The position numbers were made by a program, and so were the translations under genes. Positions 12,214-55,172 of a stretch of DNA of 64,000 bases are shown in pieces. Each line of letters starts with the position of its first letter. Positions within the stretch are counted from its first letter, which is position 1. Source of the stretch: Pseudoscardovia radai (GTDB taxonomy: Bacteria; Actinomycetota; Actinomycetes; Actinomycetales; Bifidobacteriaceae); the NCBI RefSeq assembly GCF_002259605.1, contig NZ_MWWR01000019.1:21186-85185 (forward strand), read 5' to 3'. The notes below the pieces were generated by a model. That model ran no database searches, was not told the DNA's origin, and was given only the letters and a program-made list of their open reading frames with translations.

Positions 12214-12650
12214 TGGTTCTTCTCCTTGGTGTGCAATGTGTCCTGTGCAAAGAGCCCGTCGCTGGTCCTTCTTCACCCTGGGATTGTAACTCCACGCTGC
12301 ACCGTCGGTGTGGCGAAGATGTGATAGCGGTGGGGTCGCATGCAGGGGCTGAGCGGTACACGAGAATGGAGTTCGACTCCATTCTGTAACAGTGTGATGG
12401 CCTGCGGACAAAAATCGTGTAAAAACCGCATCGAACACCTCGAAAATGTCCGCAAAGCATCACATTGTTATTGTGGCAGTGCCGAATCGGATGCGGCGGC
12501 CATATCGATTTCGCGGTTATTCCACCATTGACGTCCGCTGGAGCCCACTGACCCCTACTGACTCCGCGGTGATTAAGTTCGTCATGGCATGGTACTGTCT
12601 CGAATAGGCGGTCCCGCCACCACAAAAACAGCAGGGGAGAAGGGTGCACC
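12214..12650. other. Intergenic region carrying palindromic repeat copy A
   Basis: About 437 bp between divergent genes. It contains a perfect small hairpin at 12364-12384 (GAATGGAGT, loop TCG, ACTCCATTC), then the 84-bp palindromic element at 12387-12470, then about 180 bp leading to the DUF4236 gene with a ribosome site AGGGGAGAAGG at 12632-12642. I see no gene in it. Confidence 0.6.
12387..12470. repeat. 84-bp palindromic intergenic repeat, copy A
   Basis: Outer 24-base arms 12387-12410 and 12447-12470 are inverted repeats, 20 of 24 identical, sharing TAACA-TGTGATG and TGCGGACA. The 36-base centre contains AAAATCGTG and a TCGAACACCTCGAAAA stretch also found in copy B. Copies B, C, D lie at 29260, 49391 and 55089. 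A and B share one orientation of the centre; C and D the other. Confidence 0.85.
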
Positions 12651-13718
12651 ATGGGAATACGTTTTCGGAAAAGCTTCAATCTGGGCGGAGGATTCCGGGT
12701 GAACGTCAGCAAAAGCGGCATCGGATACAGCTGGGGCACGAAAGGCTTCCGCTACACGAAAACGGCCAGGGGATCGAAGCGAAAGACGTTCTTCATACCT
12801 GGCACCGGGTTCTCGTACGTTTCGGAAAGCGGGAAGAAGCGCTCGAACAAATCGGGTCGTGCCCGCGGCTCGAACACGGCGAGCCGATCCCAGCGCACGT
12901 ACCCGAACCAGCAGGTGCTCACGGAGAACGCCACCAGCACCGAGAGCGTGAACGCGGCCGACTATCAGCCGGCTGAATACGAGGAGCTGCTCGGTCAGAT
13001 GAAGAAGGCATTGAGGCTCGACTATCTCAGCACTTGGCTGATTGCGACGGTCATCCTTGCTGCGTATCCCGTTTTCATCGTCACGGCAATCGTGGGTGTT
13101 GTGCTCAAGGTCGTCGTTCGCCTGACGATGAAGGTCCCGATGGAGTACTCGTTCGATGACGAGGCGCGTGCTGCCTATGACGACCTTTCCGCAATCTGGA
13201 TGAGTCTGAACAACAACAAGAAGTTCTGGCAGGCGGTGTCTGAGAGCGATCTGGACGGCAAGGCGAGAGGCGGGGCGTCGCATGCGCTCAAGAGGATCCC
13301 GGTCAGGGCGACCAGCGCGATGCCATTCTTCGTGGAGTCCAACGTCCGCCCGTTCGGTTTGCGGCTTCGCAAGCAGCGGGTCTATTTCCTGCCTGACAAG
13401 ATTCTCGTCGTCAGCAGGACGAATGTGGGCGCCATCAGCTACGAGGACGCAGACATGGACTTTGACACAATCGAGTTTGTGGAAACCGATCAGGTTCCCA
13501 GCGACGCGAAAGTCGTGGACCAGACGTGGCTCCGGGTGAATAAGAACGGGACTCCTGACCGGCGATTCAAAGACAACAAACAGGTTCCGGTTTGCGAATA
13601 CGGCCATGTGGCAGTGACTTCTGACATGGGGCTGCACATCGAGCTGATGTGCTCTAACAGCGAGACCGCCAAGGAGATGCGTGCGTCTGCGAAGCGGTTT
13701 GAGGAATTCATCAGATAA
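12651..13718 (+). CDS. DUF4236 domain membrane protein
   Basis: A 355-residue protein. The N-terminus is the DUF4236 domain (1-60: MGIRFRKSFNLGGGFRVNVS, KSGIGYSWGTKGFRYTKTARG, IPGTGFSY). A disordered Ser/Asn/Thr-rich linker follows, then one or two membrane segments (about 125-155, LIATVILAAYPVFIVTAIVG). The C-terminal cytoplasmic half (about 230-350) contains RVYFLPDKILV, a Tyr-Glu-Asp motif and VNKNGTPDRRF, a conserved block in this family. No biochemical role is known. It lies between repeat copy A and the Hsp70/GTPase island and is followed by its own terminator, so it is probably a separate transcript. Confidence 0.85.
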   Translation: MGIRFRKSFNLGGGFRVNVSKSGIGYSWGTKGFRYTKTARGSKRKTFFIPGTGFSYVSESGKKRSNKSGRARGSNTASRSQRTYPNQQVLTENATSTESVNAADYQPAEYEELLGQMKKALRLDYLSTWLIATVILAAYPVFIVTAIVGVVLKVVVRLTMKVPMEYSFDDEARAAYDDLSAIWMSLNNNKKFWQAVSESDLDGKARGGASHALKRIPVRATSAMPFFVESNVRPFGLRLRKQRVYFLPDKILVVSRTNVGAISYEDADMDFDTIEFVETDQVPSDAKVVDQTWLRVNKNGTPDRRFKDNKQVPVCEYGHVAVTSDMGLHIELMCSNSETAKEMRASAKRFEEFIR

Positions 13719-13750
13719 CCCGATCGCAGTCTGTGTATGAAAAGGCTGAT

Positions 13751-13797
13751 TGCGTGCAGGCCCGTCTTGGAACGATTCCGAGACGGGCCTGCACGCA
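13751..13797 (+). terminator. Strong stem-loop terminator after the DUF4236 gene
   Basis: A perfect 17-bp inverted repeat, TGCGTGCAGGCCCGTCT (13751-13767) against 13781-13797; the loop itself can pair GGAA with TTCC. There is no T-run after it. Confidence 0.75.
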
Positions 13798-13936
13798 CTG
13801 GGGCGCACCTTGAGTGACAAGGTGCCTTGTTTTCCTCCAGCGTCTCTCATGCCCTCATTCTGCCGGAAGGCACATGTGGGATTGGTGTGGAAATATGGTG
13901 CAGAATTGGCCTAAATCCAGTCGGAATCGTGCCGAT

Positions 13937-13965
13937 TTGAGATGGAAACGGATTGCGTCTATTCT
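13937..13965 (+). promoter_or_regulatory. Candidate promoter of the Hsp70/GTPase island
   Basis: TTGAGA (13937-13942), a 17-base spacer, and TATTCT (13960-13965), 75 bp before the first gene of the island. 5/6 and 4/6 matches to the housekeeping consensus. Not tested. Confidence 0.4.
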
Positions 13966-14040
13966 TTCTTCAGGAAGACAGGCGCACGCCTGTATGGAAG
14001 TGGCTGTGTTGAAGGAGCAGCCTGAAGGGCATAGGGGGGT

Positions 14041-16011
14041 ATGGCAATGGGGCTATTCCGCGATGCGTTCTCTAAAATGATGACGCCATCAGGCTTCGGG
14101 GGGGGGTATTCCTCTGACGCCGTAATCCCCTACGCTCCGTGCAGCGATGACGCTGGCGAAGAGTTCTGGGATGCCGTTCGCAAGCCGACGGATGATGACA
14201 TCAGCGAAGGATGGCACGACGCCATCGAGCAGTACGGTCTCCAGCACGATGACTCGTATTCGCCCGTCATCGATGATGGGCTCGTTCCCAAGGCATCACG
14301 AGAGGTCAAGGCGGCCTATGCGGAAACATGGCGCCATGATGTCGACGGCGCCAGGATCTATGGCATGCCGGGATCCGGATTGCACCAGAGCCAGTTCGGA
14401 AAGAAGGAAGTGCATTCCGGAGCGACAGGCGAGCTCATCTTTGCGAAACTGCTTTCGTGGGACCATTTCCTCGACCATTGCGTTTCTTTCTGGTCGCTGT
14501 GGAATCCCGAGGAAGATGGAACCCGCAATGACATGGGCAATGACATCGACTGCGTCCTGAAGTTCGGCGATCACATTCTTCTCGTTGATGTTAAGAACTA
14601 CAGGGCCGGGCTCGAGTATCACTCGCTTATACCTGGCAAGGCGATGTTCTGCATGTACCAGAAGGCGCGTGTGGTGGCCCATGAACCGTATATCTTCAGC
14701 GCGAACATGGCCTTTGCGCAGAAGAACCTTTCCGAATACCTCGCTTCCGAAGGCAGCCGGTGCACGGTGGAGTCCTTCGTGGTTCTTGTCCCCGGCGAAC
14801 TGGGGGAGGCGACCCTCGACCCCGATATCTACTGGCCGGGCAATATCCCCGCCATGGGATACGGACAGTTCAAAGACATGCTCATCGAGCGTGGCCAGCA
14901 TGATTCGTCGTATTGCACGTTCGATCCGACGAAAACAGCCGAGGAAGGCTATCTCGCGACGCTCGTCAAAGGCTACGACGGCGCGTTGTCCCTGTTGGAT
15001 TCGCCCATGCCCGTGGCCGAATGGCCCGCCCCAACATGGGATCGCCTCGCAGGTATCAAGCCGGCACCGTCGAAGAAAGGCGGCGATGCCTCGAACCGGT
15101 GGAAGAACGGCAGGAACACGCATTCCAGCTCGAACTCGACGCCGAAGCGCGAGAGCAATGCCGCATCCTGGAAAGCCGCTGACCTCGACGATTTTGCTGA
15201 GTTCAGAAACGGGGCCGACCTTGACATCCTTCGGGACGCTGATGGCCAGAGCGTGCCTCTGTCTTTCCGCAACGTGTCGGGTGTTGTTGTGGCGGGTGAG
15301 CAAGGCTCCGGTTCCGTCATGCGCATGCAATCCGTCGTCGCGTCGCTTCTCGCATCATCCCAGGCGGAAGTGCGGATAGTCGACTGCAATGGACAGAACT
15401 CATCGTGCTTCAGTTGTTTCGAAAACTCCTGCCATTCCTATTCCAGGCTGATTGACGGGCTGGATGTTGTGGCTGGAGAAATTGAAAGCGCGTATGTCTC
15501 GCTTTCCGCTCGCAAGTCGCGGCTGCGGAAGAAAGGCCTGCAGTCATTCTGGGAAGACGATTCTCACGGTGGCGAAAAACTGGAAATTCTCACCATTCAC
15601 GAAAGCTCGAATCTGTTCGGGTTCCAAGACCTGGATTCCGGCGCATCACCCGCCGATAGGCCGCAGGAACTGGATGACATCGACAGATATCTGCGGACGA
15701 TTCTCAAGGACGGGCAGCGAATGGGCGTCTGCGTCATCCTTATGACCCAGCGTCCGTCGACAGTATCCCTGCCGGCCTATTTCGTGGATGCGGCGCAGAT
15801 TCATGTGTGCTTCCACGTTTCTTCGCCGGAGACGATCGCGACGGTGATGGGTGCGACTGGTTCCTCCGGTGTCGGCTTTGCCGGGAAGCCGGTGATTGCA
15901 CAGGCGTTCGTGTCCGATCATGGGGCGCCGGCACGGAAGGTCCTGTTCCGGCGCGTCGCGCCGTCCGTCATCGACGCACGGTTCCCGAACGGATTGTCCA
16001 ACGTTCAGTAA
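14041..16011 (+). CDS. NERD-type nuclease fused to a degenerate FtsK/HerA-like ATPase
   Basis: A 656-residue protein. Residues about 123-300 fit the nuclease-related NERD domain: SGATGELIFAKLL (127-138), then DIDCVLKFGDHILLVDVKNY (168-187) with Asp170, Asp183 and Lys185 as the likely metal site. A Ser/Lys-rich linker (340-380) leads to an FtsK-like domain (about 395-650) ending in VILMTQRPSTVSLP and SVIDARFPNGLS. The P-loop reads GEQGSGSV (419-426): the ATP-binding Lys is Ser, and the Walker B strand reads ILTIHE, so this ATPase is probably inactive or altered. A run of nine G at codons 20-22 could slip. First gene of the island; ATG 14041 follows GGGGGG. A second ATG at 14047 is possible. 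Confidence 0.72.
   Translation: MAMGLFRDAFSKMMTPSGFGGGYSSDAVIPYAPCSDDAGEEFWDAVRKPTDDDISEGWHDAIEQYGLQHDDSYSPVIDDGLVPKASREVKAAYAETWRHDVDGARIYGMPGSGLHQSQFGKKEVHSGATGELIFAKLLSWDHFLDHCVSFWSLWNPEEDGTRNDMGNDIDCVLKFGDHILLVDVKNYRAGLEYHSLIPGKAMFCMYQKARVVAHEPYIFSANMAFAQKNLSEYLASEGSRCTVESFVVLVPGELGEATLDPDIYWPGNIPAMGYGQFKDMLIERGQHDSSYCTFDPTKTAEEGYLATLVKGYDGALSLLDSPMPVAEWPAPTWDRLAGIKPAPSKKGGDASNRWKNGRNTHSSSNSTPKRESNAASWKAADLDDFAEFRNGADLDILRDADGQSVPLSFRNVSGVVVAGEQGSGSVMRMQSVVASLLASSQAEVRIVDCNGQNSSCFSCFENSCHSYSRLIDGLDVVAGEIESAYVSLSARKSRLRKKGLQSFWEDDSHGGEKLEILTIHESSNLFGFQDLDSGASPADRPQELDDIDRYLRTILKDGQRMGVCVILMTQRPSTVSLPAYFVDAAQIHVCFHVSSPETIATVMGATGSSGVGFAGKPVIAQAFVSDHGAPARKVLFRRVAPSVIDARFPNGLSNVQ
14098..14106 (+). 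repeat. Nine-G homopolymer tract near the start of the NERD-FtsK gene
   Basis: Nine consecutive G encode Gly-Gly-Gly at residues 20-22. A gain or loss of one G would frameshift the gene about 20 codons in, so it could act as a phase-variation switch. A second run of six G (14034-14039) lies in the ribosome site. Confidence 0.7.
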
Positions 16012-16045
16012 GTGATACCTAACAGAAAATCGAAGGGAGAGAAAT

Positions 16046-16444
16046 ATGTGGACCGCAATATTGGTGATTATCGGAATTTGGCTTCTTTGCGAGTTTATCA
16101 ACCACATTCTCGTGCCGTTCTTCAGCAACACGCTCCTTCCCGCACTTGGAGTAACCTTCCATGCCGCCGGCACAGGAATCTCCGTCATCGTGCGCTACGG
16201 GGTAGCGGTGATTGCGATTTTGGCACTTCTGGCGGGGCTTTGGAGCGTTATCAAGGGCTATTACCACGTCATCAACGAAGTGTACGAGGCGCGATTCGGA
16301 AAATCGGCCGGTATCGTGGTCGGCATTGCGTCGACCATTCTGTCCGTCGCCGTCATCGTCGCCATCGTGTTGCTCGTTCCGCCGCAGGCAGCTCATCAGT
16401 TTTCCGAACTCATGTCGTTCCTGCTCTCAGGCCCCGTCAAGTGA
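16046..16444 (+). CDS. Small integral membrane protein of the Hsp70/GTPase island
   Basis: A 132-residue hydrophobic protein with three to four predicted membrane helices: 3-30, about 42-72 (ISVIVRYGVAVIAILALLAG) and about 92-115 (AGIVVGIASTILSVAVIVAI). A good AAGGGAGAGAAAT ribosome site precedes ATG 16046. I do not recognise a family. Its place between the NERD protein and a membrane GTPase suggests a membrane partner of one of these. Confidence 0.75.
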   Translation: MWTAILVIIGIWLLCEFINHILVPFFSNTLLPALGVTFHAAGTGISVIVRYGVAVIAILALLAGLWSVIKGYYHVINEVYEARFGKSAGIVVGIASTILSVAVIVAIVLLVPPQAAHQFSELMSFLLSGPVK

Positions 16445-16462
16445 AAGCGCAGAGGTGAAGCT

Positions 16463-18094
16463 ATGACTGAGAAAGCCCAGACCAAGACCGTGAAACTGTG
16501 GTCGGTCGAGAATTCCGAGACGGCATATTACTGCGGGCCATGCTATGAGGATATCCGGAAGGTGGTCGCGAAAACACTCGACTCCATCCGTTCGAAGATA
16601 GCCGGCATGACCTGGAGTTTTGCGGTATCCGACAATAATCCGGACAAAGCCAAAGGTCGAACTCCTTTCGGCTGGATTCTCCGATGGATCGTCCAGTATA
16701 TCTTCTGGATTTGCTACTCGGCGGTCCTGGTGATTGCCGGTGTGGTTTTCTGTCTCTTCATGTTGCTGCCGCATGTGGTGGTATCTTTCGCCATGCAGTT
16801 CTTCGGCATCATCGGGCTGGGTATTGCCAGGTTGATTGACGACCTGAGCCTGAGGCTGCGTCGAGTCTCCCTTGTATGCGACCGTTGCCATTCCCGTTTC
16901 AAAAGGCCGGTCTATGTGTGCCCGAGCTGTGGCGCCATGCATGCACTTCTGTTCCCGAACAAATATGGAGCGCTGCACCACACCTGCACTTGTGGAATGA
17001 AGCTTGCCTCAAGCGTTCTCGTTGCGAAGGACCCCCGAAGGAATCTGACCGGTGTTTGCCCGGAATGTTTGAAGTCCGGCCACAAGGAGCTTGTTGCCGG
17101 CGCCGGAAGCCGTACGATTTGTGTTCCAGTGGTGGGCGGTGCGTCATCCGGCAAGACGGCGTTGATCACCGCCTACGTCAATGGCCTGATGCGCAATCGT
17201 GCATCCGCCAATGACCTGACGATCCAATTCGATAACGAGAATGCGGACAAAGTGATGCAAATCGACCGGATGGCCAGCGATTACGCGAATGGAGTGGTGG
17301 CGAAAACTGCCACGGTGACCACGAACGATCGGTCGAGCGCCTTCGCCACGAGCATTTTCATCCAAGGCAAAGATCTGAAACCCAGGCGCTTGCTGCAGAT
17401 GTACGATATCGCCGGCGAGACATTCGTTGACAATAACGTCCATGAACAGCAGCGCCAGTATGAGCACTGCGACGGAATCATCCTCGTCATCGACCCCATG
17501 ACGGTGGGACAGGCGCAGGCACGCTTCGGCGGCCAGCTCTCCCTTGGCGATTGGGGTGCCGCGAGCACGGCTCCATTGCAGAATGTTCTCGATGCCTTGA
17601 ACAATACCGTCAACGAGGTAACGAATATCGCGAGGTCTGGTTCCAAGGTGCGCATACCGCTTGCCGTCGTTCTTAACAAGGTCGATGAGGCGCCCGCTCT
17701 CGAGACACGAATCGGGCAGACCGCGGTCCGACTCATGCAGGCGAGTGCCGTGCGGAATCAGTTCGCCGATGATTGCGACACGATGGATTTTCTGTGCCGT
17801 CAGTTCTTCGCCGATATGGATGAGATGAGCTTCGTTGCCAATCTTGATGCGAATTTCGCTCATTGCCGCTACTTCTCCGTCAGCGCCATCGGTCATACCG
17901 CAGGAGCGGGTACAGGGCCTTTCATGCCGCGGAACGTGGACCTGGTCATGGATTGGATCATCGACCAAAGCGATCCGAAACTCGCTCAGGCCCTGAACTG
18001 CAGAAAGTTCTCCAAGGCGAAGCTTCCGGTGATTCAGCCGTATCCGGGCATCTACGACAATCTCGTCGGACAGATCAACAGAACGCAGGTATGA
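16463..18094 (+). CDS. Membrane-anchored zinc-ribbon GTPase (DO-GTPase-like)
   Basis: A 543-residue protein. A soluble N-terminus (1-70) is followed by a two-helix membrane hairpin (about 74-125), a double zinc ribbon with Cys pairs at 139/142, 153/156, 175/177 and 199/202, and a TRAFAC-like GTPase. The GTPase shows P-loop GGASSGKT (225-232), a switch II DIAGE (315-319) and the guanine motif NKVD (405-408). This layout resembles the double-GTPase (DO-GTPase) families described in NTP-dependent conflict systems. The active site faces the cytoplasm next to an Hsp70 pair and a GAP1-like protein, so it may act as a membrane sensor or threshold switch. Family by motif; function inferred. Confidence 0.78.
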   Translation: MTEKAQTKTVKLWSVENSETAYYCGPCYEDIRKVVAKTLDSIRSKIAGMTWSFAVSDNNPDKAKGRTPFGWILRWIVQYIFWICYSAVLVIAGVVFCLFMLLPHVVVSFAMQFFGIIGLGIARLIDDLSLRLRRVSLVCDRCHSRFKRPVYVCPSCGAMHALLFPNKYGALHHTCTCGMKLASSVLVAKDPRRNLTGVCPECLKSGHKELVAGAGSRTICVPVVGGASSGKTALITAYVNGLMRNRASANDLTIQFDNENADKVMQIDRMASDYANGVVAKTATVTTNDRSSAFATSIFIQGKDLKPRRLLQMYDIAGETFVDNNVHEQQRQYEHCDGIILVIDPMTVGQAQARFGGQLSLGDWGAASTAPLQNVLDALNNTVNEVTNIARSGSKVRIPLAVVLNKVDEAPALETRIGQTAVRLMQASAVRNQFADDCDTMDFLCRQFFADMDEMSFVANLDANFAHCRYFSVSAIGHTAGAGTGPFMPRNVDLVMDWIIDQSDPKLAQALNCRKFSKAKLPVIQPYPGIYDNLVGQINRTQV

Positions 18095-18099
18095 GATTG

Positions 18100-18133
18100 C
18101 GCATATGCTGCGTCACCTCGCGCAGCATATGCG
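18100..18133 (+). terminator. Intercistronic hairpin between GTPase and GrpE-like gene
   Basis: A perfect 13-bp stem, CGCATATGCTGCG (18100-18112) against CGCAGCATATGCG (18121-18133), loop of 8. No T-run: attenuator or RNA-stability element as likely as a terminator. Confidence 0.6.
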
Positions 18134-18188
18134 AACGGCGTCGCAATGCAATGGATGAACAGCAATGTACAACCAGAAAGGAACACAC

Positions 18189-19210: not shown

Positions 19211-19266
19211 CGCGCCCATCATGATTTGAAAAACCAGCTAATCATCGGCATATGAAAGGACAAGCA

Positions 19267-29220: not shown

Positions 29221-29566
29221 TGATTGTGTGAAGCACGAATGGAGCCCGACTCTATTCTGTAACAGTGTGATGGCTTACGGACAAAAATCGTGTAAAAACC
29301 AGCATCGAACACCTCGAAAATGTCCGCAAAGCATCACAGTGTTATGGAGCGACGCCCGATGCCGGCGGAGGGATGTCAATGGCCACCATCACGTGGCGTA
29401 GACTGAATCGTGGTGCTTGTGCGCGCCCGCGGCACCGCTGCCGCGAGCCCGCACGCCGCGCCACACCAGTACCCGCGCCGCGCGCCGCAAGCGAACGCGC
29501 CGTGCACCACACGCCAGCGTCCGCGCGTCACAACCCGCGCACCGCACATACCGAAGGGGGATTCGC
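29221..29566. other. Intergenic region with repeat copy B and a GC-rich leader
   Basis: About 346 bp. Copy B of the palindromic repeat is at 29260-29344, preceded by an imperfect version of the copy A hairpin (29238-29258). From 29410 to 29550 the sequence is very C/G-rich (runs of CGCGCC), resembling the leader before the SPFH gene at 36240-36300. The ribosome site GAAGGGGG lies at 29553-29560. No gene seen. Confidence 0.55.
29260..29344. repeat. 85-bp palindromic intergenic repeat, copy B
   Basis: Arms 29260-29283 and 29321-29344, same orientation and nearly the same centre as copy A (AAAATCGTGTAAAAACC, one base longer). It separates the Hsp70/GTPase island from the coiled-coil/SPFH block. 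Confidence 0.85.
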
Positions 29567-31576
29567 ATGCTGCTGTTTTCCGCATTCCTGGAAGCGAACG
29601 AAAAGCTGGACGCCGACGCGTTCATCGAGCTGGCCATCCGCTGCAACCAGGAGAACCAGTACGACTTCAACCGCGTCCGCGGCATCGATTGGAAGCCGGG
29701 CGTGCGCACCGCGCGCTACGGAACGCCGGATCTGTCGCTGACCATCTGCGAATACGGCGATGATTCGCTCGACCGCAACTTCCCCGCCGCATGGCTCGAA
29801 AGTTACAAGGAGGCTCGTCGTCGCAACCCGCGCACCATCGTCAGCCTGCAGGAGGCGGTCGGCAAGCACGCCGGTTCGAAAAGCCAGAAGAACCGCAAGA
29901 ACAGGAAGGGTGGCAAGAAAGGCCGCGGTCAGGCCTCCTCTTCGCGAGGCGCCGATGTGGGCGCCACCCAGCTTGCCGCCATCCGCGCGAGGCTGAGGAA
30001 ATCGCATATCGTCGCCATCCGCCAGGAGAAAGTCGACAAGGGCATCCACTGGCAGACCGACTATATCCTCAACCTCTCGCAGCGCAGCCTGCAGATCCAG
30101 CTGAGCCGCACTTTCCGCAGTGGCACGATGGATTTCGACCGCGATTTCTCCACGCCGTGGTTCATCTCGTTCCTCATCGACGGCGGCTACCTCGAGCCCG
30201 ACGGCGAGATGCCGATCCGCAAGCGCCCGACCGCCGTCACCGCCGACACGCTCGACATGTTCGGCGGCATCGTGCAGGGGCGCCACGCCACGCGCCTGCC
30301 GCTCGTCTACGTCTCGCGCACCGCCGACGGCGACCTGGCGGTGAACGCGGATCTGCTCGCCTCGCAGCTCAAGGGCGTGGCGCATGTGTTCACGGAGGAG
30401 TCCCACGATATGGACGCCGCGGTGGCGCAGGTGTGCGGCGAACAGCTTGCAACCGACGGCGCGCTGACGATTCTGTGGCCGCGCGGCGATACCGGCTACG
30501 AGGTGGAGGAGCGCCCCGTTCCGCGCCATGTGGCGGATGACGTTCGCGGCGGATTCCTAGCCGATACGGTGCGCCGCCGCATCTTCGCCGTCCTGCGGCA
30601 GGAGGATGTGTTCGACGAATTCACGTGGGACGGCGTCAACGCGCTGATTGCGCAGACGTCCACCGAGAGGCTCGAAAAGCAGTACGATTCTGCCTCGAAC
30701 GAGCTCGAACAGGCCCGGCGCCGGCTGGATGCGTCGAGCGAGAAGCTGCGCCAGCAGAGGGACGCGACCTCACGCCTGAGCGCCGACCTTGCCGAAAGCC
30801 GTGACAAGCTCGACCGCCTCTCCGAACGCGTGAGCCGCCAGGAGGGTGAGCTTGACGAGCAGAAGCGGCAGAACGCGGAGAAAGACGAGAAACTGCGCCG
30901 GATCAACCAGGAAACGCGCCGCGACGACGACGAGCGGCGCAAGCTGCTGGCGAAGGCTGAGGCGGAGCAGCAGGAGCTGATAGACAACGCTGACGAATCC
31001 CTGGCGCAGCAGAAGGAGCTGCTCGAGCAAGAGCGCGAGAGGGCGGACCGCCAGAACGAGCTGGTGGAACAGCTGCGCCGCCGCGTGAGGCAGCTGACGC
31101 AGCAGGTGGAGGGCCTTCGGGACGAGAACGAGCGGATGGCGCGTCGGTTTGCGAACGGCGCGGTATCGACGCCGCTGGTGTATGCGGGCGGCGAGCACGA
31201 CCTCTTCGACCGCGAGATGCGCGACTACGTGCTCGAGGCGGTGAAGCATGAGCTGGACGGCTGCGGGCACGGCGACAGCAAGCAGAGCTGGCGCAAGGTG
31301 GATGTGCTGAGCGACGTGCTGGAGTCGAACGATTACGAGGGCCTGCACGAGCAGCGGCGCGAGGAGCTGCGGCGCGCGCTGGTGGGGTACCGCGGGATGA
31401 CGGCGCAGCTCGAGGCGACGCTGGATGACCTGGGGTACAAGGTGATCCGCGGCGATCGGCATTACATACTCGAGTACTGCGGCGACGCGCGGTATCGGTT
31501 CACGCTGGCCAAGACGCCGAGCGACGTCCACGCGGGGGATAACTCGGCGACGAAGATCGCGCGGTTGACGCAGTAG
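29567..31576 (+). CDS. Coiled-coil protein with possible HicA-like C-terminal domain
   Basis: A 669-residue protein. The N-terminal region (1-330) is a mixed alpha/beta globular part with a basic Lys/Asn-rich insert (about 105-125). A long charged coiled coil spans about 365-520 (repeated Glu-Gln-Leu-Arg heptads). The last 55 residues (LGYKVIRGDRHYILEY, then TLAKTPSDVHAG) resemble in pattern the small HicA mRNA-interferase fold, including a His after a Gly-Asp-Arg turn; this is a weak, motif-level resemblance. ATG 29567 has the good site GAAGGGGG. The longer frame from 29417 has none. First gene after repeat B; function unknown. Confidence 0.65.
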   Translation: MLLFSAFLEANEKLDADAFIELAIRCNQENQYDFNRVRGIDWKPGVRTARYGTPDLSLTICEYGDDSLDRNFPAAWLESYKEARRRNPRTIVSLQEAVGKHAGSKSQKNRKNRKGGKKGRGQASSSRGADVGATQLAAIRARLRKSHIVAIRQEKVDKGIHWQTDYILNLSQRSLQIQLSRTFRSGTMDFDRDFSTPWFISFLIDGGYLEPDGEMPIRKRPTAVTADTLDMFGGIVQGRHATRLPLVYVSRTADGDLAVNADLLASQLKGVAHVFTEESHDMDAAVAQVCGEQLATDGALTILWPRGDTGYEVEERPVPRHVADDVRGGFLADTVRRRIFAVLRQEDVFDEFTWDGVNALIAQTSTERLEKQYDSASNELEQARRRLDASSEKLRQQRDATSRLSADLAESRDKLDRLSERVSRQEGELDEQKRQNAEKDEKLRRINQETRRDDDERRKLLAKAEAEQQELIDNADESLAQQKELLEQERERADRQNELVEQLRRRVRQLTQQVEGLRDENERMARRFANGAVSTPLVYAGGEHDLFDREMRDYVLEAVKHELDGCGHGDSKQSWRKVDVLSDVLESNDYEGLHEQRREELRRALVGYRGMTAQLEATLDDLGYKVIRGDRHYILEYCGDARYRFTLAKTPSDVHAGDNSATKIARLTQ

Positions 31577-33398: not shown

Positions 33399-34668
33399 GC
33401 GGAGTGTGGCGGGCGGGTGCGCGGCGGTGCGGGTGGCGCTCGACCCCACGCCGCGGCAGGCCGGGCTGCTGAGAAGCCACGCGGGCGGGGCGCGCACCGC
33501 CTATAACGCGGGTCTGGCGCATGTCAGGGAGCTGCTCGACGCCGGGGGGAGGCCCGAGTGGGGCATGTACGCGCTGCGCAGGTGGTGGAACGGGGCGAAG
33601 GATTCGATCGCCCCGTGGTGGGCCGAGAACAGCAAGGAATGCTACTCGTACGGCCTGGAGTGCCTTGCCGGGGCGCTGAAAAACTGGTCGGACTCCAGGC
33701 ACGGCAGACGCAAGGGACGGAGAGTCGGGTTCCCGCGGTTCAAGTCGCGTCGCGCGTCCCGTCCGGCGTTCGCGTATACGACGGGCTCGTTCGGCCTTGT
33801 TCCGGGGGATCCGCGCGCGTTGAGGCTGCCGCGTATCGGGCGCGTCCACTGCATGGAGGACGTGACCGCCCGCGTGGGCGGGAGGCGCGTCCTGCGCATG
33901 ACCGTCAGCGAGCGGTCCGGACGCTGGTATGCGTCGCTCACGGTGGAGGAGCCGCCCGCGAAGCCCGCGCCCGTGCCGCCGAAAAAGGGGACCGTGGGCG
34001 TGGACCTGGGAATCAAGACGCTGGCCACCCTGTCGGACGGCACCGTGGTGGGGAACGGGAAGCCGCTGGGACACGCCATGCGCCGTTTGAAGAAGGCGCA
34101 GCGCCGCCTGGGCCGGATGACGAAAGGCTCCGGGAGGCGGGAGAGACAGCGCCGGAGGGTCGCGCGGCTCCACGGGCGGGTGGCCGACGTCAGGCGCGAC
34201 GCCATGCACAAGCTCACCACGCGCCTGCCCTCGTCCTATTCGGAAATCCATATCGAGGATTTGAACGTGCAGGGCATGATGGCCAACCATCGTCTCGCGA
34301 TGGCGGTGGCGGACGCGGGCTTCCACGAGCTGCGCCGCCAGCTCGGATACAAGTGCAGGCGCACGGGCGCCAGGCTCGTCATCGTGGACCGATGGTACCC
34401 GAGCTCGAAGAGATGCTCCAACTGCGGGTCGGTGAAAGCCAAGCTGGCCCTCGGGGAGCGCACCTACAGGTGCGACGGGTGCGGGTACGTGGCCGACCGT
34501 GACCTGAACGCGGCCGTCAATCTCAGGGATTGGAATCCCCCGGTCGCCGGGAGTGCCCCGGAGACCCTAAACGCGCGCGGAGGGGACGTAAGACGGGCCG
34601 ACGCCAAGCGTCGGGCAACGCGGACCCCTGTGAAACGCGAACCAAGCGACCGGACCCGTCCGGCATGA
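33391..34668 (+). CDS. tnpB: TnpB RNA-guided endonuclease of the IS607 element
   Basis: A 425-residue TnpB with an apparently intact nuclease: RuvC-I GVDLGIKTLA (around 205, Asp), RuvC-II SEIHIEDLNVQGM (Glu), a zinc finger with CSNCGS and CDGCGY, and RuvC-III ADRDLNAAVN (Asp). TnpB is guided by an RNA encoded at the right end of its element and promotes retention of the element by cutting the empty site. The C-terminal tail after RuvC-III (about 40 residues, Arg/Pro-rich) is typical where the guide RNA overlaps the gene end. The ATG overlaps tnpA by 8 bp. Confidence 0.93.
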   Translation: MRRRSVAGGCAAVRVALDPTPRQAGLLRSHAGGARTAYNAGLAHVRELLDAGGRPEWGMYALRRWWNGAKDSIAPWWAENSKECYSYGLECLAGALKNWSDSRHGRRKGRRVGFPRFKSRRASRPAFAYTTGSFGLVPGDPRALRLPRIGRVHCMEDVTARVGGRRVLRMTVSERSGRWYASLTVEEPPAKPAPVPPKKGTVGVDLGIKTLATLSDGTVVGNGKPLGHAMRRLKKAQRRLGRMTKGSGRRERQRRRVARLHGRVADVRRDAMHKLTTRLPSSYSEIHIEDLNVQGMMANHRLAMAVADAGFHELRRQLGYKCRRTGARLVIVDRWYPSSKRCSNCGSVKAKLALGERTYRCDGCGYVADRDLNAAVNLRDWNPPVAGSAPETLNARGGDVRRADAKRRATRTPVKREPSDRTRPA

Positions 34669-34931
34669 GACTTGGAGCTGCCCCGGGCAACCGGGACATG
34701 CAAGCCGGTCGGTTCACAATAACCAACCGACTTACAACGGATTCGGTGACATCGCGGCAATGTCGCCGGCGGGCGGATATCGCCAACGCTTATAGGTGGT
34801 GCGAGCGAAAGACGATAGCGGGGCCGCGATTCGGCGGCGCCGTGTGCATATTCTCGCAATCAGATTCATCCCGCGGATGTGCTTGGCTTGCAGGTCCGCG
34901 GGTCTCGTACGTTACGAGACAAGGAGGAGAC
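34560..34931 (+). ncRNA. Likely tnpB guide RNA (reRNA) region and element right end
   Basis: The last part of tnpB and the non-coding stretch after it hold several hairpins, including one with GTCGGTT and AACCGAC arms near 34708-34732. Guide RNAs of TnpB systems come from exactly this position. The 3' end of the RNA, and hence the guide and element boundary, cannot be fixed by eye. The last bases, AAGGAGGA at 34921-34928, are the ribosome site of the next gene. Confidence 0.4.
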
Positions 34932-47239: not shown

Positions 47240-47241
47240 AC

Positions 47242-49104: not shown

Positions 49105-49121
49105 GGAGGTGCGTGCTTACA

Positions 49122-49204
49122 TAACGCTGGTACGGCTTGCAGACAGAATTCCACGATTTTGCGGTCGTTTTACCCCGATTCGTCCGTACACCGTACCACT
49201 GTTA
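49122..49204. repeat. Divergent palindromic repeat, copy E
   Basis: 83 bp, same length and layout as copies A-D, beginning TAAC and ending GTTA. The arms read TGGTACGG instead of TGTGATGG, but both arms changed together, so the stem is kept. Confidence 0.65.
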
Positions 49205-49238
49205 AAAAGGAAACGACCCAGTCTCCGCATACCCATCG

Positions 49239-49282
49239 AAATGGCGTTAGGCGGGTGCCGTCGCACCCGCCTAACGCCATTT
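49239..49282. terminator. Hairpin H1, perfect 20-bp stem
   Basis: Bases 49239-49258 pair perfectly with 49263-49282 around loop CGTC. The core is GCGGGTGCCGTCGCACCCGC; a short T-run follows the second arm (TTTTG). It can terminate the SPFH operon and, from the other strand, the creatininase operon. Confidence 0.7.
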
Positions 49283-49323
49283 TGACCACCGAACCGACCC
49301 CGAACCCTCCGAAATCGTTTTAA

Positions 49324-49343
49324 GCGGGTGCCGTCGCACCCGC
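49324..49343. repeat. Hairpin H2 of the tandem hairpin family
   Basis: Same 20-base core as H1 (8-bp stem, loop CGTC), with more weakly paired flanks; the flanking GAAATCG and CGCCAAAATGG also resemble H1, H3 and H4. Confidence 0.65.
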
Positions 49344-49390
49344 CGAACGCCAAAATGGGCGGGAGCGCAGCCAGGCGCCGTCACCCTCCG

Positions 49391-49474
49391 TAACAATGTG
49401 ATGGGAAACGGGCACGGAACGGGCTCCGAAGGGCGAAATCGTATGATTTCTGTCCGCAAGCCATCACATTGTTA
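49391..49474. repeat. 84-bp palindromic intergenic repeat, copy C
   Basis: Arms 49391-49414 and 49451-49474; the right arm contains TGTCCGCAAGCCATCACA, identical to copy D. The left arm has decayed in its inner third (ATGGGAAACGGGCA). The centre ends in CGAAATCGTATGATTTC. It lies between the SPFH/AAA block and the creatinine module. Confidence 0.82.
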
Positions 49475-49545
49475 GTGGGGGAGGGTGTTATTGGGGGAGA
49501 ATTACTGGAGAAGATACTGGTGCGGTGTGGAGGGGCGACGATGGG

Positions 49546-50313: not shown

Positions 50314-50402
50314 GGTGTTTTCCTTTCCGTGCCCCAGGGGCACACGATTGCGGTGGACGGTCCGCCCGGTCGGATGGATCGCCCACCGCGGTGAATCGAC
50401 AT

Positions 50403-51758
50403 TCAGATATGTTCGAGATCCTTGTCGGCGTTCTCGTGCGACATGATCATGGCGACAAGTGCGATAGCCGCGATGGCGACCATGTACCAAGCCGGGGCGA
50501 GAGCGGAGCCGCTGACGTAGATGAGCCACGTGGCGATGAACGACGCGGTGCCGCCGAAGATGGCGTTCGCCATGTTGAAGGAGAAGGCGAAGCCGGTGAA
50601 GCGCACGTCGGTGGGGAATGTCTCCGTCAGGTAGCTCGACAGCGTGCCGTCGTTCGCCGTGAGGGTGGCGCACATGGCGAGCTCCACGAGAAGCACGGGC
50701 AGGAACAGGCCGGTGTTGAGAATCATGAACGCGGGCACGGTGAGCGCAATGAAGGCGACGCATGCGGCGATGAGCATCTTCTTGCGGCCCACGCGATCCG
50801 ACACATGTCCCATGAGGAACACGAGGCCTACGTAGAGCACAAGGCAGATGGTCGTGATGGTGTTGGCCTGGGTGGCGTCCATGTTCACGGTTTCCGTCAG
50901 GTAGTTCGGCAGGTAGGTGAGCACGGTGTAGAAGCCGACGGCGTTGAGCATGGAGGCGCCGAAGCTGATGAGAAGCTCGCGGCGGTGGTATGTGAAGAGC
51001 ATGCGCAGCGGCGACTGGCCTTTGCCCGTCTTCTTTTCGGCGGAGGCGAGGGCCTCGGTCATGCGGTTATACACCGGCGAATCCGCGAGCTGCGTGCGGA
51101 TATAATGCACGATGAGTCCGAGCGGGCCGGCAAGGAGGAACGGCACGCGCCAGCCCCAGGATGCCATGGCCTCGGAGCTCAGCACGCTTGTCATGACCGT
51201 CGCCATGAGGGATCCGCACAGCAGGCCGATGGCGGTGGATGCCGGAATCAGCGAGCAGTAGATGCCGCGCTTCTTCGTCGGCGCGTATTCGCCGAGGAAC
51301 GTGGCGGCGCCCGCATATTCGCCGGAGGCGGAGAAGCCCTGGACCATGCGCAGCAGCAGGAGCAGCGCAGGTGCCGCGATTCCAATCGTGGCGTATCCGG
51401 GCAGGCATCCGATGAGGAACGACGCGCCGCTCATCAGAAGCACGGACAGCGACAGCGCCGCCTTGCGGCCGTGGCGGTCGCCGAAGCTTCCCCAGAACAG
51501 GGCGCCGATCGGGCGCAGTACGAAGGACAGCGCGAAAACCGCGAAGGTCTCGAGGAGTGCGACCGTGTGGTTGGAGTTGGAGAAGAACACCACGGCGATG
51601 ACCGTGGCGAAATAGGAGTACGACGCGTAGTCGAACCATTCGATGAAGTTGCCGAGGAAGGAGGAGACGGCGACCTTGCGGACCATCTCCTGCTGTTCGT
51701 CGGCTTCTGTGCCTTCGTCCTTCGTGACGAAGGCCGTGCCATTGAGTGCGGTTGTCAT
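50403..51758 (-). CDS. MFS transporter of the metabolite:H+ symporter (MHS) family
   Basis: A 451-residue, 12-helix proton symporter. Family signatures: GNFIEWFDYASYSYF near 35-49, RPIGALFWGSFGDRHGRKAA near 82-101 and LLRMVQGFSASGEYAGAATF near 135-155. MHS members carry citrate, betaine, alpha-ketoglutarate and similar zwitterions. In front of the creatininase gene, it is the likely importer of creatinine or creatine. The start at 51758 has only a weak purine-rich site. Confidence 0.9.
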   Translation of the reverse strand: MTTALNGTAFVTKDEGTEADEQQEMVRKVAVSSFLGNFIEWFDYASYSYFATVIAVVFFSNSNHTVALLETFAVFALSFVLRPIGALFWGSFGDRHGRKAALSLSVLLMSGASFLIGCLPGYATIGIAAPALLLLLRMVQGFSASGEYAGAATFLGEYAPTKKRGIYCSLIPASTAIGLLCGSLMATVMTSVLSSEAMASWGWRVPFLLAGPLGLIVHYIRTQLADSPVYNRMTEALASAEKKTGKGQSPLRMLFTYHRRELLISFGASMLNAVGFYTVLTYLPNYLTETVNMDATQANTITTICLVLYVGLVFLMGHVSDRVGRKKMLIAACVAFIALTVPAFMILNTGLFLPVLLVELAMCATLTANDGTLSSYLTETFPTDVRFTGFAFSFNMANAIFGGTASFIATWLIYVSGSALAPAWYMVAIAAIALVAMIMSHENADKDLEHI

Positions 51759-51998
51759 GTCGGTCTCTTTCGTTCGGGCTATTCGATGCAGTGTGCGGGA
51801 CAGGAACGCGAAGGGGATGGAAGCTGCGCGTTCCGTGGACCGGAAAGACTCGAGGCATCTGGGCCGTTCGTGACGTCCCGCGCCTGATGACCCTTACTGT
51901 GGCCGCACGGATTTGCCGCGTCATGAACGCGTTGTTAATCGGTTTTCCGCGAGACTGGACATGGTGTCATACCGCGTTGGATGCTTATTGCTTGGACA

Positions 51999-53525
51999 TC
52001 ACGATGGAAGGTGACGCGTCGGGAGGGAAGACAGCATCTTGGCGCAGGTCGTGACAACCGCCCATGTCTGTGCGTCGTCGATATCACAGCCGGATATGCG
52101 GCACAGTCTGTCAAGACGGCCGTACAGGGTCTGCCGGCGGATGCCGAGCAGATCCGCCGCGGCGCTTTTACTGGATGCGGCATCGAAGCAGGCGCACAGA
52201 GTGTCCATGAGCTGCTGGTCGTTCATCGCGGATTCCCCGAGACAACGGCGTGACATGGTCTGTACTCCGCGTCTCACGTCGTCCGAGAGCATCAGACACC
52301 GGAGGGCGTCTTCGTAATACGACCTCACGCAGCCATTGGACGTCCCGCGTTCCTCGATCGGTGGCATGGCCGCGAGCGCGCCGAATGCAGTCACCAGTGC
52401 CTCGGCGGAATCCACGAGGCGCACCACATCCACTTTCGCGCCGGATTCGGTTGCGCATCTTTCCATCACATCGTGGCATGAGCGCAGGAACCCAATCGGA
52501 TCGGCCATCGCATCGCGTCCGCCGAGAAAACCGAGAAGCACGTCGCCATGCAACACTTCGCAGACGATGCACGCGTCGTCGGTTTCGAAATCGTCCAGTA
52601 CGCGCAACACGGCGTCGAGCTGGCCGACGGGGGAGCGCAGCCGTACGGCGAAAGGGTAGAAGGCATACGATGCGTCCACTCCGAGAGCCGACAGGGCGGC
52701 CGCCGTGTCCCGTGTCTCGTCGGGCGTGGCCGCCAGGTCGTCTGCGGGGCCGGCCATGACGAGGTTGAGCAGGTTCACGCCCATGTCGGTGCCTCTCAAT
52801 CCCGACAGGAGTGCGGCGGCCGACCGGCACACCTCCCGCGCCACCTCATCCGAGAGGGCACCCCGTGTATTGGAGATCTCGATCGTGCCCAGGCACATGC
52901 CGTCCGAATCCACTTCCAGTACCCGGGAGGAGCCGCCGTTCTTCGGTCCGGCTGGCGTGCATGACGCGACCAGGTCGCCCAGCGGGTCGAAAATGGCCAC
53001 GTTCTCCCGGAAGACCCCCGACAATGCCGATGCCAGGGCCGAAGGGGTGCGCGCGCTCGCCAACGCCTCATGCAGTGCGGCCGACACGCTGTCCGCCTGC
53101 ATGCGGACGCTGATCTCATCCTGCACAATGCGCGTATTGATGCGCTCGCAGATATTCACGAACGGCACACGGGCGAACAGCCCCACCACAATGAAACCAC
53201 GTGCCTCGGCGTGCTCCAGCATGGATGACGGAACCTCAGTGACGCCCTGCACCAGCTCGATGACGAGCGCACTGACCCCCGCATCGCACAGATCGTCAAT
53301 ATACGTGGGCAGAGCCGTGTCGCCGCGCCGGCCTATCGCCTGCAGCGCGTTCCCCTCGATGACCAGCATCTCGCCGCCTGACAGGAACGTGGCGATATCC
53401 GCCCGTTCGTTCGTGTACACCCATCGCACGCGTTTGTCCAAGGCCTCGTCGTCGCCTGAGAGGATCTGTGCCCGCGCTGTGCGGAAAATGTCGTCGGACA
53501 GAGCATCGCGAACCATCATGACCAT
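51999..53525 (-). CDS. PucR-family transcriptional regulator
   Basis: A 508-residue regulator. The N-terminal PucR sensor domain (1-130; ARAQILSGDDEALDKRVRWV, FLSGGEMLVIEGNAL) is followed by a GAF-like middle and a C-terminal helix-turn-helix (about 440-500; SKSAAADLLGIRRQTLYGRL). PucR-type factors control purine, allantoin and related nitrogen catabolism. Start codon is uncertain among ATGs at 53525, 53519 and 53516. Divergent from the CodA-like gene and upstream of the transporter-creatininase operon, it is the natural local regulator of all three. Confidence 0.88.
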   Translation of the reverse strand: MVMMVRDALSDDIFRTARAQILSGDDEALDKRVRWVYTNERADIATFLSGGEMLVIEGNALQAIGRRGDTALPTYIDDLCDAGVSALVIELVQGVTEVPSSMLEHAEARGFIVVGLFARVPFVNICERINTRIVQDEISVRMQADSVSAALHEALASARTPSALASALSGVFRENVAIFDPLGDLVASCTPAGPKNGGSSRVLEVDSDGMCLGTIEISNTRGALSDEVAREVCRSAAALLSGLRGTDMGVNLLNLVMAGPADDLAATPDETRDTAAALSALGVDASYAFYPFAVRLRSPVGQLDAVLRVLDDFETDDACIVCEVLHGDVLLGFLGGRDAMADPIGFLRSCHDVMERCATESGAKVDVVRLVDSAEALVTAFGALAAMPPIEERGTSNGCVRSYYEDALRCLMLSDDVRRGVQTMSRRCLGESAMNDQQLMDTLCACFDAASSKSAAADLLGIRRQTLYGRLDRLCRISGCDIDDAQTWAVVTTCAKMLSSLPTRHLPS

Positions 53526-53550
53526 ACAGAGTGTCCAATCGTCGTAACAC

Positions 53551-53571
53551 GTTGCGCCATCGTGGCGTAAC
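53551..53571. promoter_or_regulatory. Candidate operator in the pucR/codA divergent region
   Basis: GTTGCGCCA, spacer TCG, TGGCGTAAC: an interrupted palindrome with 8 of 9 pairs, 26 bp upstream of the PucR start. A plausible binding site for the regulator. The rest of the 208-bp region holds the codA ribosome site AAGGAGG (53720-53726). Confidence 0.4.
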
Positions 53572-53733
53572 TGGGCGGAAAACCATTGCCCAGACACTAC
53601 GTCATGTATGTTGCGTTTCGTCGCGCGGCGCCGGCACTCTGCCGTGCGGCCGCGGAACGCCGCAATCGTCGCGGACGGCCCGCGCCGCCGTAGAGCAAAA
53701 GCCCGGAGGAACCGGAGCGTAAGGAGGACAACC

Positions 53734-55053
53734 ATGACACGAACCCTGTTCACCAACGCACATATCGCAACCGGGGAATCCGGCAGCACCGCCGCGCAGA
53801 CGGCGTCGTTGCAGGACATCCTTGTCGAGGACGGACGCTTCGCCGCCATCGGGGAAGGGCTGGCAGCCAGCCTGCCCGCCCAGGGGTATGACACGACCGG
53901 GCTTGACGTCGTGGACCTTGGCGGCAAACTCGTGACCCCGCCTTTCTGCGACACCCATCTGCACCTAGATTACGTGTTCACCGCACGCAAGCCCGGAGCC
54001 GTCAACGAAAGCGGCACGCTGTTCGAAGGCATCCAGCGCTGGAGCGACACCAAGTCCGACCTCACCATCGATGACATCAAGACGCGCGCCCGCACCGCCA
54101 TCGGCATGGAGCTGCGCCACGGCGTCCAGTTCATCCGCTCCCATGCCGATGTCACGGACCCCAATCTCACATCCCTCAAGGCACTCCTTGAGCTCAAGGA
54201 GGAGCTCAAGGATACGGTGACTATCCAGATCGTCTCGTTCCCGCAGGAAGGCATGTACTCGTACGTGGGGCCCCATGGCGAGAGCGGCGCCGACCTCGTG
54301 GAGGAAGGCCTGCGCATGGGCGCCGACTGCGTGGGCGGCATCCCGCATTTCGAACAGTGCCGCGAATTCGGCGAACGCTCCATGCACACGGTGGTCGAGC
54401 TGGCCTCGAAATACGATCGACTCATCGACGTGCACTGCGACGAAACCGACGATCCGAATTCACGCTACGTGGAGCTGCTCGCCGCGCTCGCGTACCGCGC
54501 CGGCATCGGCGAGCGCACCACCGCGAGCCACACATGCTCCCTCGGGTCCGCCGACAACGCGTACTTCTTCCACCTGACCAAGCTGCTCAAAGCCGCTCAT
54601 GTGAACTTCGCCTGCGCGCCCACCGAGAACCTCTATCTGCAGGGCCGTCAGGACACCTTCCCCAAGCGCCGCGGCATCACGCGCGTCAAGGAGCTCACCG
54701 ATGCGGGCATCAATGTTTCTCTGGGGCAGGACTCCATGCAGGATCCGTGGTATCCGCTGGGCAACGGCAATATGATGATCATCCTCGACTACGTGCTCCA
54801 CGTGGCCCAGATGATGAGCTTCCCGGAGATCGACGACGCCATGAAGTTCCTCACCGTGAACGGTGCGACCACGCTCGGCATGCGCGATTCCTACGGTCTT
54901 GAGGCCGGCAGGCCGGCGAATTTCGTGGTGCTTGACGCTGACAGTGTGTTCGACGCCGTGTACCAGCGCTGCGACGTGCTGCGCTCCGTGCGTGAGGGGC
55001 GCACTCTCTTCACCGCCGCCACCACGGTGGAATCCTCCACCGATTTGCTGTGA
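53734..55053 (+). CDS. CodA-like amidohydrolase (cytosine/creatinine deaminase type)
   Basis: A 439-residue metal-dependent deaminase. It aligns along its whole length with E. coli cytosine deaminase: His75 and His77 (DTHLHLD), Gln171 (VSFPQEG), His234 and Glu237 (HCDETDD), His266 (ASHT) and the metal Asp333. The E. coli GHDD becomes GQDS (331-334), so the residue equal to substrate-specificity Asp314 is Ser and His312 is Gln. Some bacterial members deaminate creatinine to N-methylhydantoin; the creatininase and PucR neighbours favour that over cytosine. ATG has a strong AAGGAGG. Divergent from pucR. Confidence 0.85.
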   Translation: MTRTLFTNAHIATGESGSTAAQTASLQDILVEDGRFAAIGEGLAASLPAQGYDTTGLDVVDLGGKLVTPPFCDTHLHLDYVFTARKPGAVNESGTLFEGIQRWSDTKSDLTIDDIKTRARTAIGMELRHGVQFIRSHADVTDPNLTSLKALLELKEELKDTVTIQIVSFPQEGMYSYVGPHGESGADLVEEGLRMGADCVGGIPHFEQCREFGERSMHTVVELASKYDRLIDVHCDETDDPNSRYVELLAALAYRAGIGERTTASHTCSLGSADNAYFFHLTKLLKAAHVNFACAPTENLYLQGRQDTFPKRRGITRVKELTDAGINVSLGQDSMQDPWYPLGNGNMMIILDYVLHVAQMMSFPEIDDAMKFLTVNGATTLGMRDSYGLEAGRPANFVVLDADSVFDAVYQRCDVLRSVREGRTLFTAATTVESSTDLL

Positions 55054-55088
55054 GGTTGCCCGGGAACCGTGGGATGGGTATGGCGGGG

Positions 55089-55172
55089 AAACAGTGGGAT
55101 GACTTGCGGACATTTTTCGACGATTTTTGGCCTTCAAGGCACGATTTCTGTCCGCAAGCCATCACATTGTTA
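55089..55172. repeat. 84-bp palindromic intergenic repeat, copy D
   Basis: Arms near 55089-55112 and 55149-55172. Right arm identical to copy C. Its centre (ACATTTTTCGACGATTTTT) matches copies A and B read on the opposite strand, so D is inverted relative to them. It lies at the end of the creatinine module. Confidence 0.83.

What the first reader, a model, noticed from the sequence alone, without database searches (positions are those of the whole stretch)
12387..55172. An 84-bp palindromic repeat marks the borders of three functional blocks
Copies A (12387-12470), B (29260-29344), C (49391-49474) and D (55089-55172) have the same length and arms built on TAACAATGTGATG and TGTCCGCAAGC. A-B enclose the DUF4236 gene and Hsp70/GTPase island, B-C the coiled-coil/SPFH/AAA block, C-D the creatinine module. 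None interrupts a gene. A non-autonomous mobile element, a recombination hot spot for cassette exchange, or a chromosome-domain or RNA element would all be new here.
Basis: partly seen in the sequence, partly recalled or inferred. Interest (0 to 1): 0.8.

Follow-up and report, generated by a model that had tools for sequence, protein, structure and literature searches.

The report
Palindrome family used as transposon landing-pad
The 84-base mirror-image repeat is one of at least 85 copies scattered between the genes of this Bifidobacteriaceae genome; a resident jumping element has inserted at one exact spot in several of them, and the repeat itself likely spreads with the help of an enzyme that has not been identified, rather than marking the borders of gene blocks.

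Summary
The four copies are real (A, C, D 84 nt; B 85 nt), and the window holds a fifth at 49122-49204. They belong to a family of at least 85 full-length copies in this 2.44-Mb genome, a genus-mate of Bifidobacteriaceae bacterium UBA2724. Of 151 sampled family genomes only these two match. Copies are pairs of inverted 23-nt half-sites with two fixed spacings: 36 nt inside a copy, 11 nt between neighbours. 60 of 60 examined copies are intergenic. A resident 1.88-kb IS3-family element, with no match in three genus-mates, has entered copies repeatedly: 7 of 11 readable IS junctions lie in an arm, all at the same position. Matched ends show a 3-bp duplication at one palindrome and two other sites. 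This resembles ISPsy8 and IS1397 in REPs. The repeat behaves like a REPIN/BIME but lacks a self-palindromic unit, a GTAG/CGTC tag, and a RAYT transposase in the assembly. Block borders fail as a rule: where relatives align, copies sit at disturbed gene neighbourhoods no more often than other gaps (p = 0.81), although A and D flank a segment mostly missing from one relative's locus. New variant of a known kind; the mover is inferred, not found.

The parts
12387..12470 (-). Copy A of the 84-nt palindrome (P1)
   Evidence: R1 79.5 bits
29260..29344 (-). Copy B of P1 (85 nt)
   Evidence: 77.4 bits
49122..49204 (+).
   Evidence: (38.2 bits)
49391..49474 (-). Copy C of P1
   Evidence: 61.4 bits
55089..55172 (+). 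Copy D of P1
   Evidence: 85.4 bits
12364..12384 (.). 21-nt hairpin GAATGGAGTTCGACTCCATTC beside A, shared with B
29237..29257 (.). the same hairpin beside B
49216..49364 (.). two units of a second palindromic repeat (P2, GGCGGGTGCCGTCGCACCCGCC, 73-nt period), between the fifth copy and C
55184..55405. P2-like units beside D (three, one of them found by the stricter pattern)

Best explanation
The 84-bp repeat is one unit of a dispersed intergenic family of paired inverted half-sites (at least 85 places in this genome) that a resident IS3-family insertion sequence has entered repeatedly at one exact arm position, and it likely spreads as a REPIN-like non-autonomous element moved by an enzyme not yet identified. 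Shown: half-sites alternate in direction with fixed spacers of 36 nt (within a copy) and 11 nt (between neighbours); the examined copies are intergenic and mostly nearer a stop codon than a start; the family is far more numerous in this species than in its three genus-mates; the IS sits in at least five different copies at the same arm position, and matched ends show a 3-bp duplication (arm positions 16-18) at one of them and at two sites outside palindromes. Inferred: the half-site is the recognition sequence of a protein that copies or moves the hairpin; the IS transposase recognises that sequence; the present role is mainly that of a mobile parasite and landing pad, not a block border.
For: Copy number and specificity. 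Fixed architecture on one 318-kb contig: 34 of 43 facing half-site pairs within 20-160 nt are exactly 59 nt apart start to start (36-nt core), and 23 of 25 back-to-back pairs within 60 nt have an 11-nt gap; one search repeats this with a weight matrix. With core lengths of 32-42 nt allowed, 41 of 46 strict-arm copies have a 36-nt core. Intergenic: 60 of 60, of which 30 of 37 in same-direction gaps lie nearer the upstream stop codon. Lineage amplification: none of the 11 gaps that carry a copy here and keep their gene neighbours in UBA2724 has an R1 match there (one of these gaps contains masked bases in UBA2724); UBA2724 has 4 places in the 380 kb scanned. IS targeting: left ends 4 of 6 and right ends 3 of 5 readable lie in a P1 arm at the same point. 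With copies covering 0.3-0.5% of the genome, chance gives P of about 1e-8 to 1e-9 for the left ends alone. Three left/right pairs share a unique 3-bp duplication (CAA, CAT, TAC); joining the CAA pair gives back an unbroken palindrome. No target duplication flanks the palindromes themselves (40 copies). 33 of 40 copies on that contig share one chromosomal polarity, in gaps of either gene direction, as would be expected of some single-strand movers.
Against: No mobiliser was found. The Y1 transposase family of RAYTs has no match in this assembly, which is 91.5% complete. No clean empty site for a palindrome could be shown, because the matching intergenic DNA in UBA2724 is diverged throughout. 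The IS also sits outside palindromes (2 of 6 left ends, 2 of 5 readable right ends). The right end in C18 has no left partner with the same duplication, and the three TTG left ends cannot be paired with certainty. Polarity is less one-sided outside that contig (12 to 8 among the other 20 copies), and neighbouring copies are not independent.
Confidence: 0.67

Rival explanations
1. An ordinary MITE: a deletion derivative of a DDE transposon, with 23-nt terminal inverted repeats, moved by that transposon's enzyme.
For: Inverted arms, and larger arm-bounded variants with about 220-510 nt between the arms.
Against: No excess of matching flanks at any length from 2 to 9 among 40 isolated copies. Arms repeat in arrays at an exact 11-nt gap. 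The larger variants I read hold other repeats or a nested palindrome, not a transposase gene.
Confidence: 0.15
2. A fixed DNA site for a chromosome-organising or other binding protein, kept by selection, not by mobility.
For: Arm letters are conserved while paired variable positions do not co-vary. Exact spacings. Strong regional clustering: 40 places in a 318-kb contig, 6 in 300 kb of another, 0 in the first 90 kb and 9 in the last 55 kb of a third. One polarity dominates on the densest contig.
Against: No match in G002 and G003 and few in UBA2724, and none in the 11 matching gaps of UBA2724, which is unlike a conserved housekeeping site.
Confidence: 0.1
3. An RNA hairpin at gene ends (terminator, mRNA stabiliser or small RNA).
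For: Folds strongly, -27 to -47 kcal/mol in the 16 copies folded. 30 of 37 copies in same-direction gaps lie nearer the upstream stop codon.
Against: Changes at variable arm positions break pairs more often than shuffling would (500 of 500 shuffles pair at least as well). No Rfam match on the copies. I saw no T-run next to the arms in the flanks printed (by eye).
Confidence: 0.05
4. A border or recombination site for cassette exchange.
For: A and D flank a 43-kb segment whose flanks, but mostly not its contents, are found at one locus of G003.
Against: No enrichment at disturbed gene neighbourhoods: 11 of 22 palindrome gaps conserved against 40 of 73 others.
Confidence: 0.04

Closest known systems
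REPINs and BIMEs (paired or arrayed REP sequences; passages, with parts of the abstracts, of PMC3116915 and PMC2817692)
   Same: High-copy intergenic palindromes; inverted doublets with preferred spacing predicted to form hairpins; alternating orientation in regular arrays; solitary half-sites.
   Different: The unit arm is not itself a palindrome, carries no GTAG or CGTC tag, shows no complementary changes, and no RAYT-family gene is in the assembly. Its phylum is not among those listed in the survey passages that I read (PMC3733652).
ISPsy8, IS1397 and ISKpn1 (IS3-family elements inserting into REPs; PMC1525189 abstract, first part of the Discussion, and passages)
   Same: IS3-family transposase; breaks the repeat at exactly one point; 3-bp direct repeat (as stated there for ISPsy8).
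   Different: Single 597-aa transposase frame with a lysine-rich segment; the target is a non-REP half-site; targeting is strong but not exclusive (7 of 11 readable junctions).
MITEs (general knowledge, and a remark in PMC3116915)
   Same: Short, non-coding, inverted termini, dispersed.
   Different: No target duplication and strict array spacing; no parent transposon found.

Membership tests
REP / REPIN / BIME | High copy number, intergenic | tested here: met
   85 listed full-length places (hand count); 60 of 60 examined are intergenic
REP / REPIN / BIME | Inverted doublets and regular arrays in alternating orientation | tested here: met
   a few chains have longer or irregular interiors
REP / REPIN / BIME | Each unit contains its own imperfect palindrome | tested here: not met
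   Arm folds at -0.4 kcal/mol against -20.9 for an E. coli REP typed from recall
REP / REPIN / BIME | GTAG or CGTC tag | tested here: not met
   Neither occurs in the consensus arm on either strand (direct reading)
REP / REPIN / BIME | Cognate RAYT (Y1_Tnp) in the genome | tested here: not met
   0 matches in own genome, 91.5% complete; of three genus-mates only G003 has one
REP / REPIN / BIME | Complementary changes that keep the palindrome | tested here: not met
   1 of 23 pairs has a change on both sides; shuffles average 3.7
REP-targeting IS3-family element (ISPsy8 type) | Same insertion point in the repeat and 3-bp direct repeat | tested here: met
   7 junctions at one point; the direct repeat itself is shown for one palindrome, whose CAA pair rejoins to an unbroken copy
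REP-targeting IS3-family element (ISPsy8 type) | All copies in the repeat | tested here: not met
   2 of 6 left ends and 2 of 5 readable right ends lie elsewhere
IS3 family | rve integrase core, HTH domains, 3-4 bp duplication (the duplication size is recalled) | tested here: met
   rve, HTH_21, rve_2 and HTH_Tnp_1 above their Pfam cut-offs; 3-bp duplications; some homologues named IS3 family transposase
MITE | Target-site duplication | tested here: not met
MITE | Parent transposon with the same termini | tested here: inconclusive
   None noticed in the roughly 0.9 Mb scanned; arms more than 450 nt apart were not paired systematically, and the rest of the genome was not scanned for termini

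The most novel reading that the evidence does not exclude
A REPIN-like class of mobile palindrome that evolved without RAYTs: a two-spacing half-site code (36 and 11 nt) moved through single-stranded DNA by an enzyme of unknown family, in a phylum not listed in the REP survey passages that I read, with its own site-specific IS3 parasite and companion palindrome families (P2, P3) building mosaic arrays.
Probability: 0.3. Interest if true: 0.72.

Novelty: new variant of a known kind. Interest (0 to 1): 0.5.

Why it matters
REPINs are proposed to spread with the help of RAYT transposases. A high-copy, strictly spaced palindrome family with no RAYT in the assembly suggests that the same genomic niche can be filled by another mover, and gives a defined sequence with which to look for it. 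The IS3-family element adds a further case of palindrome targeting, with insertion coordinates precise enough for a simple plasmid assay.

Tried and rejected
Block borders: tested on the stretches aligned to UBA2724 and rejected as a rule. Conserved RNA: Rfam and pair counts gave nothing on the copies. RAYT: none in own genome. IS terminal repeat: the arm beside the IS looked at first like the IS's own end; two of six left ends lack any arm and one sits in the opposite arm, so it is target DNA. Clean empty sites for the palindrome: eight matched gaps read side by side, none clean; one of them has a copy in both species and one holds masked bases. Similarity against distance between copies: no overall trend (Spearman about -0.05; 103 of 500 permutations as low), although 12 of the 15 most similar pairs lie within 31 kb. 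G-U wobble bias between strands as a sign of RNA: 38 against 28, not convincing. Replication origin: dnaA is on another contig, so the position of the dense contig relative to the origin is unknown. Paper searches for such repeats in Bifidobacteriaceae; no title or abstract start listed described one.
Full report
OBSERVATION. A search of the window's own genome with copy A gave 47 BLAST rows. From 41 copies I built a covariance model, R1. It lists 85 full-length places in the genome by my hand count, plus two cut by an insertion sequence; the table is capped at 150 rows, so this is a lower bound. Local scans add a few, among them a fifth copy in the window at 49122-49204.

ORGANISM AND RANGE. 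An exact search for one arm in a collection of 84,980 species genomes found a single record, Bifidobacteriaceae bacterium UBA2724 (the window's own genome may be left out there). That record has the same length as contig C10 of the genus-mate G001, so I take G001 to be UBA2724. Of 151 sampled genomes of the family, 2 match at 1e-5: the window's own and G001 (stricter filters). G002 and G003, of the same genus, have no match at 1e-3. G001 has 4 places in the 380 kb that I scanned. One of these is at the matching site of a copy here and has the same arms (C30:181039); another is at a matching site with different outer arm letters.

ANATOMY. A copy is two inverted 23-nt half-sites, consensus AACAATGTGATGGCTTGCGGACA, around a 36-nt core. 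On contig C30, 34 of 43 facing pairs within 20-160 nt have exactly that spacing, and 23 of 25 back-to-back neighbours within 60 nt are 11 nt apart. Extra single half-sites mostly sit at the 11-nt gap; some chains have longer interiors (219-311 nt) or irregular gaps. The core differs widely between copies but its length hardly does: 35 of 40 copies are 84 nt in a scan that allowed 82-87, and 41 of 46 strict-arm copies have a 36-nt core in a scan that allowed 32-42. Positions 6, 15 and 18 of the arm vary, yet the two arms do not change together: 1 of 23 pairs shows a change on both sides, against a shuffled mean of 3.7, and every shuffle pairs at least as well as the real alignment. The arm therefore looks like a recognition sequence, not a paired RNA stem. 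The copy ends carry no target duplication (40 copies); the flanks are lopsided, pyrimidine-rich on one side and purine-rich on the other.

PLACE. By my own gene caller, trained on this genome, 60 of 60 copies on four stretches are intergenic. In same-direction gaps 30 of 37 lie closer to the upstream stop codon. Copies are regional: 40 in the 318-kb contig C30 and 9 in the last 55 kb of C34, but none in the first 90 kb of C34 and 6 in 300 kb of C23. On C30, 33 of 40 have the same polarity, 13 of 16 in forward-gene gaps and 7 of 9 in reverse-gene gaps; outside C30 it is 12 of 20. I cannot place C30 relative to the origin.

INSERTION SEQUENCE. Two arms near contig ends continued into a transposase gene. 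The IS is about 1880 bp (1859 on contig C11, the window's own contig, plus 21 seen at other ends). It encodes a 597-aa protein with IS3-family domains, is 67-69% identical over residues 300-597 to proteins named IS3 family transposase in Bifidobacterium, and has no match in the three genus-mates. Its ends are read in pieces because the assembly breaks at it. Left ends: C15, C1 and C6 follow GGCTTG in a left arm, C9 follows GTCCGCAA in a right arm, C10 and C11 lie outside palindromes. Right ends: C18, C6 and C4 lie in arms, C34 and C35 elsewhere, and contig C11 starts inside the IS. All seven arm junctions are at the same place, arm positions 16-18. Three left/right pairs share a unique 3-bp duplication: C9-C4 (CAA), C11-C34 (CAT), C10-C35 (TAC). 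Joined without the IS, the first is an unbroken 84-nt palindrome and the other two are unbroken open frames. The three TTG left ends and the C6 right end cannot be paired with certainty, and the C18 right end has no partner, so the count is five palindromes of seven sites, or six of eight.

MOBILITY. Eleven gaps keep the same gene neighbours in UBA2724 and carry a copy here; none has an R1 match there, with the caution that one holds masked bases. Side-by-side reading shows the whole intergenic DNA diverged, so no clean empty site was seen. Of the 15 most similar pairs of copies on C30, 12 lie within 31 kb, without an overall trend. I infer movement by an enzyme acting in trans. The RAYT family (Pfam Y1_Tnp) has no match in the assembly.

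BLOCK BORDERS. Gaps with palindromes keep their neighbours in 11 of 22 cases, other gaps in 40 of 73 (Fisher p = 0.81), so palindromes do not mark disturbed neighbourhoods in general. In the window, aligned DNA at one G003 locus ends 98 bp before A and resumes 601 bp after D. Of what lies between, the gene at 53734-55053 is found elsewhere in G003, and a distant relative (40% amino-acid identity) of the gene at 29567-31576 lies further along the same G003 contig. This is one case in a rearranged region, and B and C cannot be judged.

COMPARISON. It works like a REPIN/BIME system (passages of PMC3116915 and PMC2817692) and its IS works like ISPsy8 or IS1397 (PMC1525189: abstract, first part of the Discussion, passages), for which that paper reports insertion at one point of a REP with a 3-base direct repeat (ISPsy8). 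It fails the REP membership tests of self-palindromic unit, GTAG/CGTC tag (PMC3733652 passages; PMC8266576 passages) and cognate RAYT. The text of PMC3733652 holds no word beginning with Bifidobacter, Actinomyce or Corynebacter.

COMPANIONS. Two further intergenic palindrome families occur: P2 (73-nt period, 81 units) and P3 (84-nt period, 83 units) on C30, C34, C23 and the window, all intergenic by my caller. P3 shares gaps with P1 far more often than expected (15 of 21 P3 gaps hold P1, against 47 of 342 gaps overall; Fisher p = 4e-10), with the caution that both are concentrated on C30.

Noticed in passing
window 49216-49364 and 55184-55405; C23, C30 and C34 of the same genome: Second intergenic palindrome family (P2, GGCGGGTGCCGTCGCACCCGCC) in tandem arrays, nearly always at a 73-nt period; 81 units in C30, C34, C23 and the window, all intergenic by my caller.
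   Followed up: partly
C30, C34, C23 of the same genome (for example C34:53501-54303): Third family (P3, about 47-nt palindrome AACGGTGCCTCTCACTG...CAGTGAGACCGACCGTT) in arrays at an 84-nt period or its double; often shares a gap with, or lies inside a split copy of, the 84-nt palindrome.
   Followed up: partly
C30:8301, 10711 and 35141 (loci L080, L081): Three copies of a longer arm-bounded unit (about 265-290 nt) with a nested palindrome, each between two 84-nt copies.
   Followed up: partly
window 12364-12384 and 29237-29257: A and B share a 21-nt hairpin just outside the arm, not found elsewhere in C30, C34, C23 and 380 kb of UBA2724; the two copies are 95% identical, so they look like a recent pair.
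   Followed up: partly
window 34632-34702: Rfam match RF03015 (Transposase-2 RNA, 67 bits), unexplained here.
   Followed up: no
G003:C1:292085-292447 (locus L181): A 157-aa Y1 transposase-family gene, the only one found in the four genus genomes, in a genome without a match to the palindrome.
   Followed up: no
C6:30376 and C30:147857 of the same genome; window 49122: Arm subfamily with GGTACG in place of TGATGG; UBA2724 has a further arm version (CATCAGG). The outer arm letters differ by subfamily while the inner CGGAC stays.
   Followed up: partly
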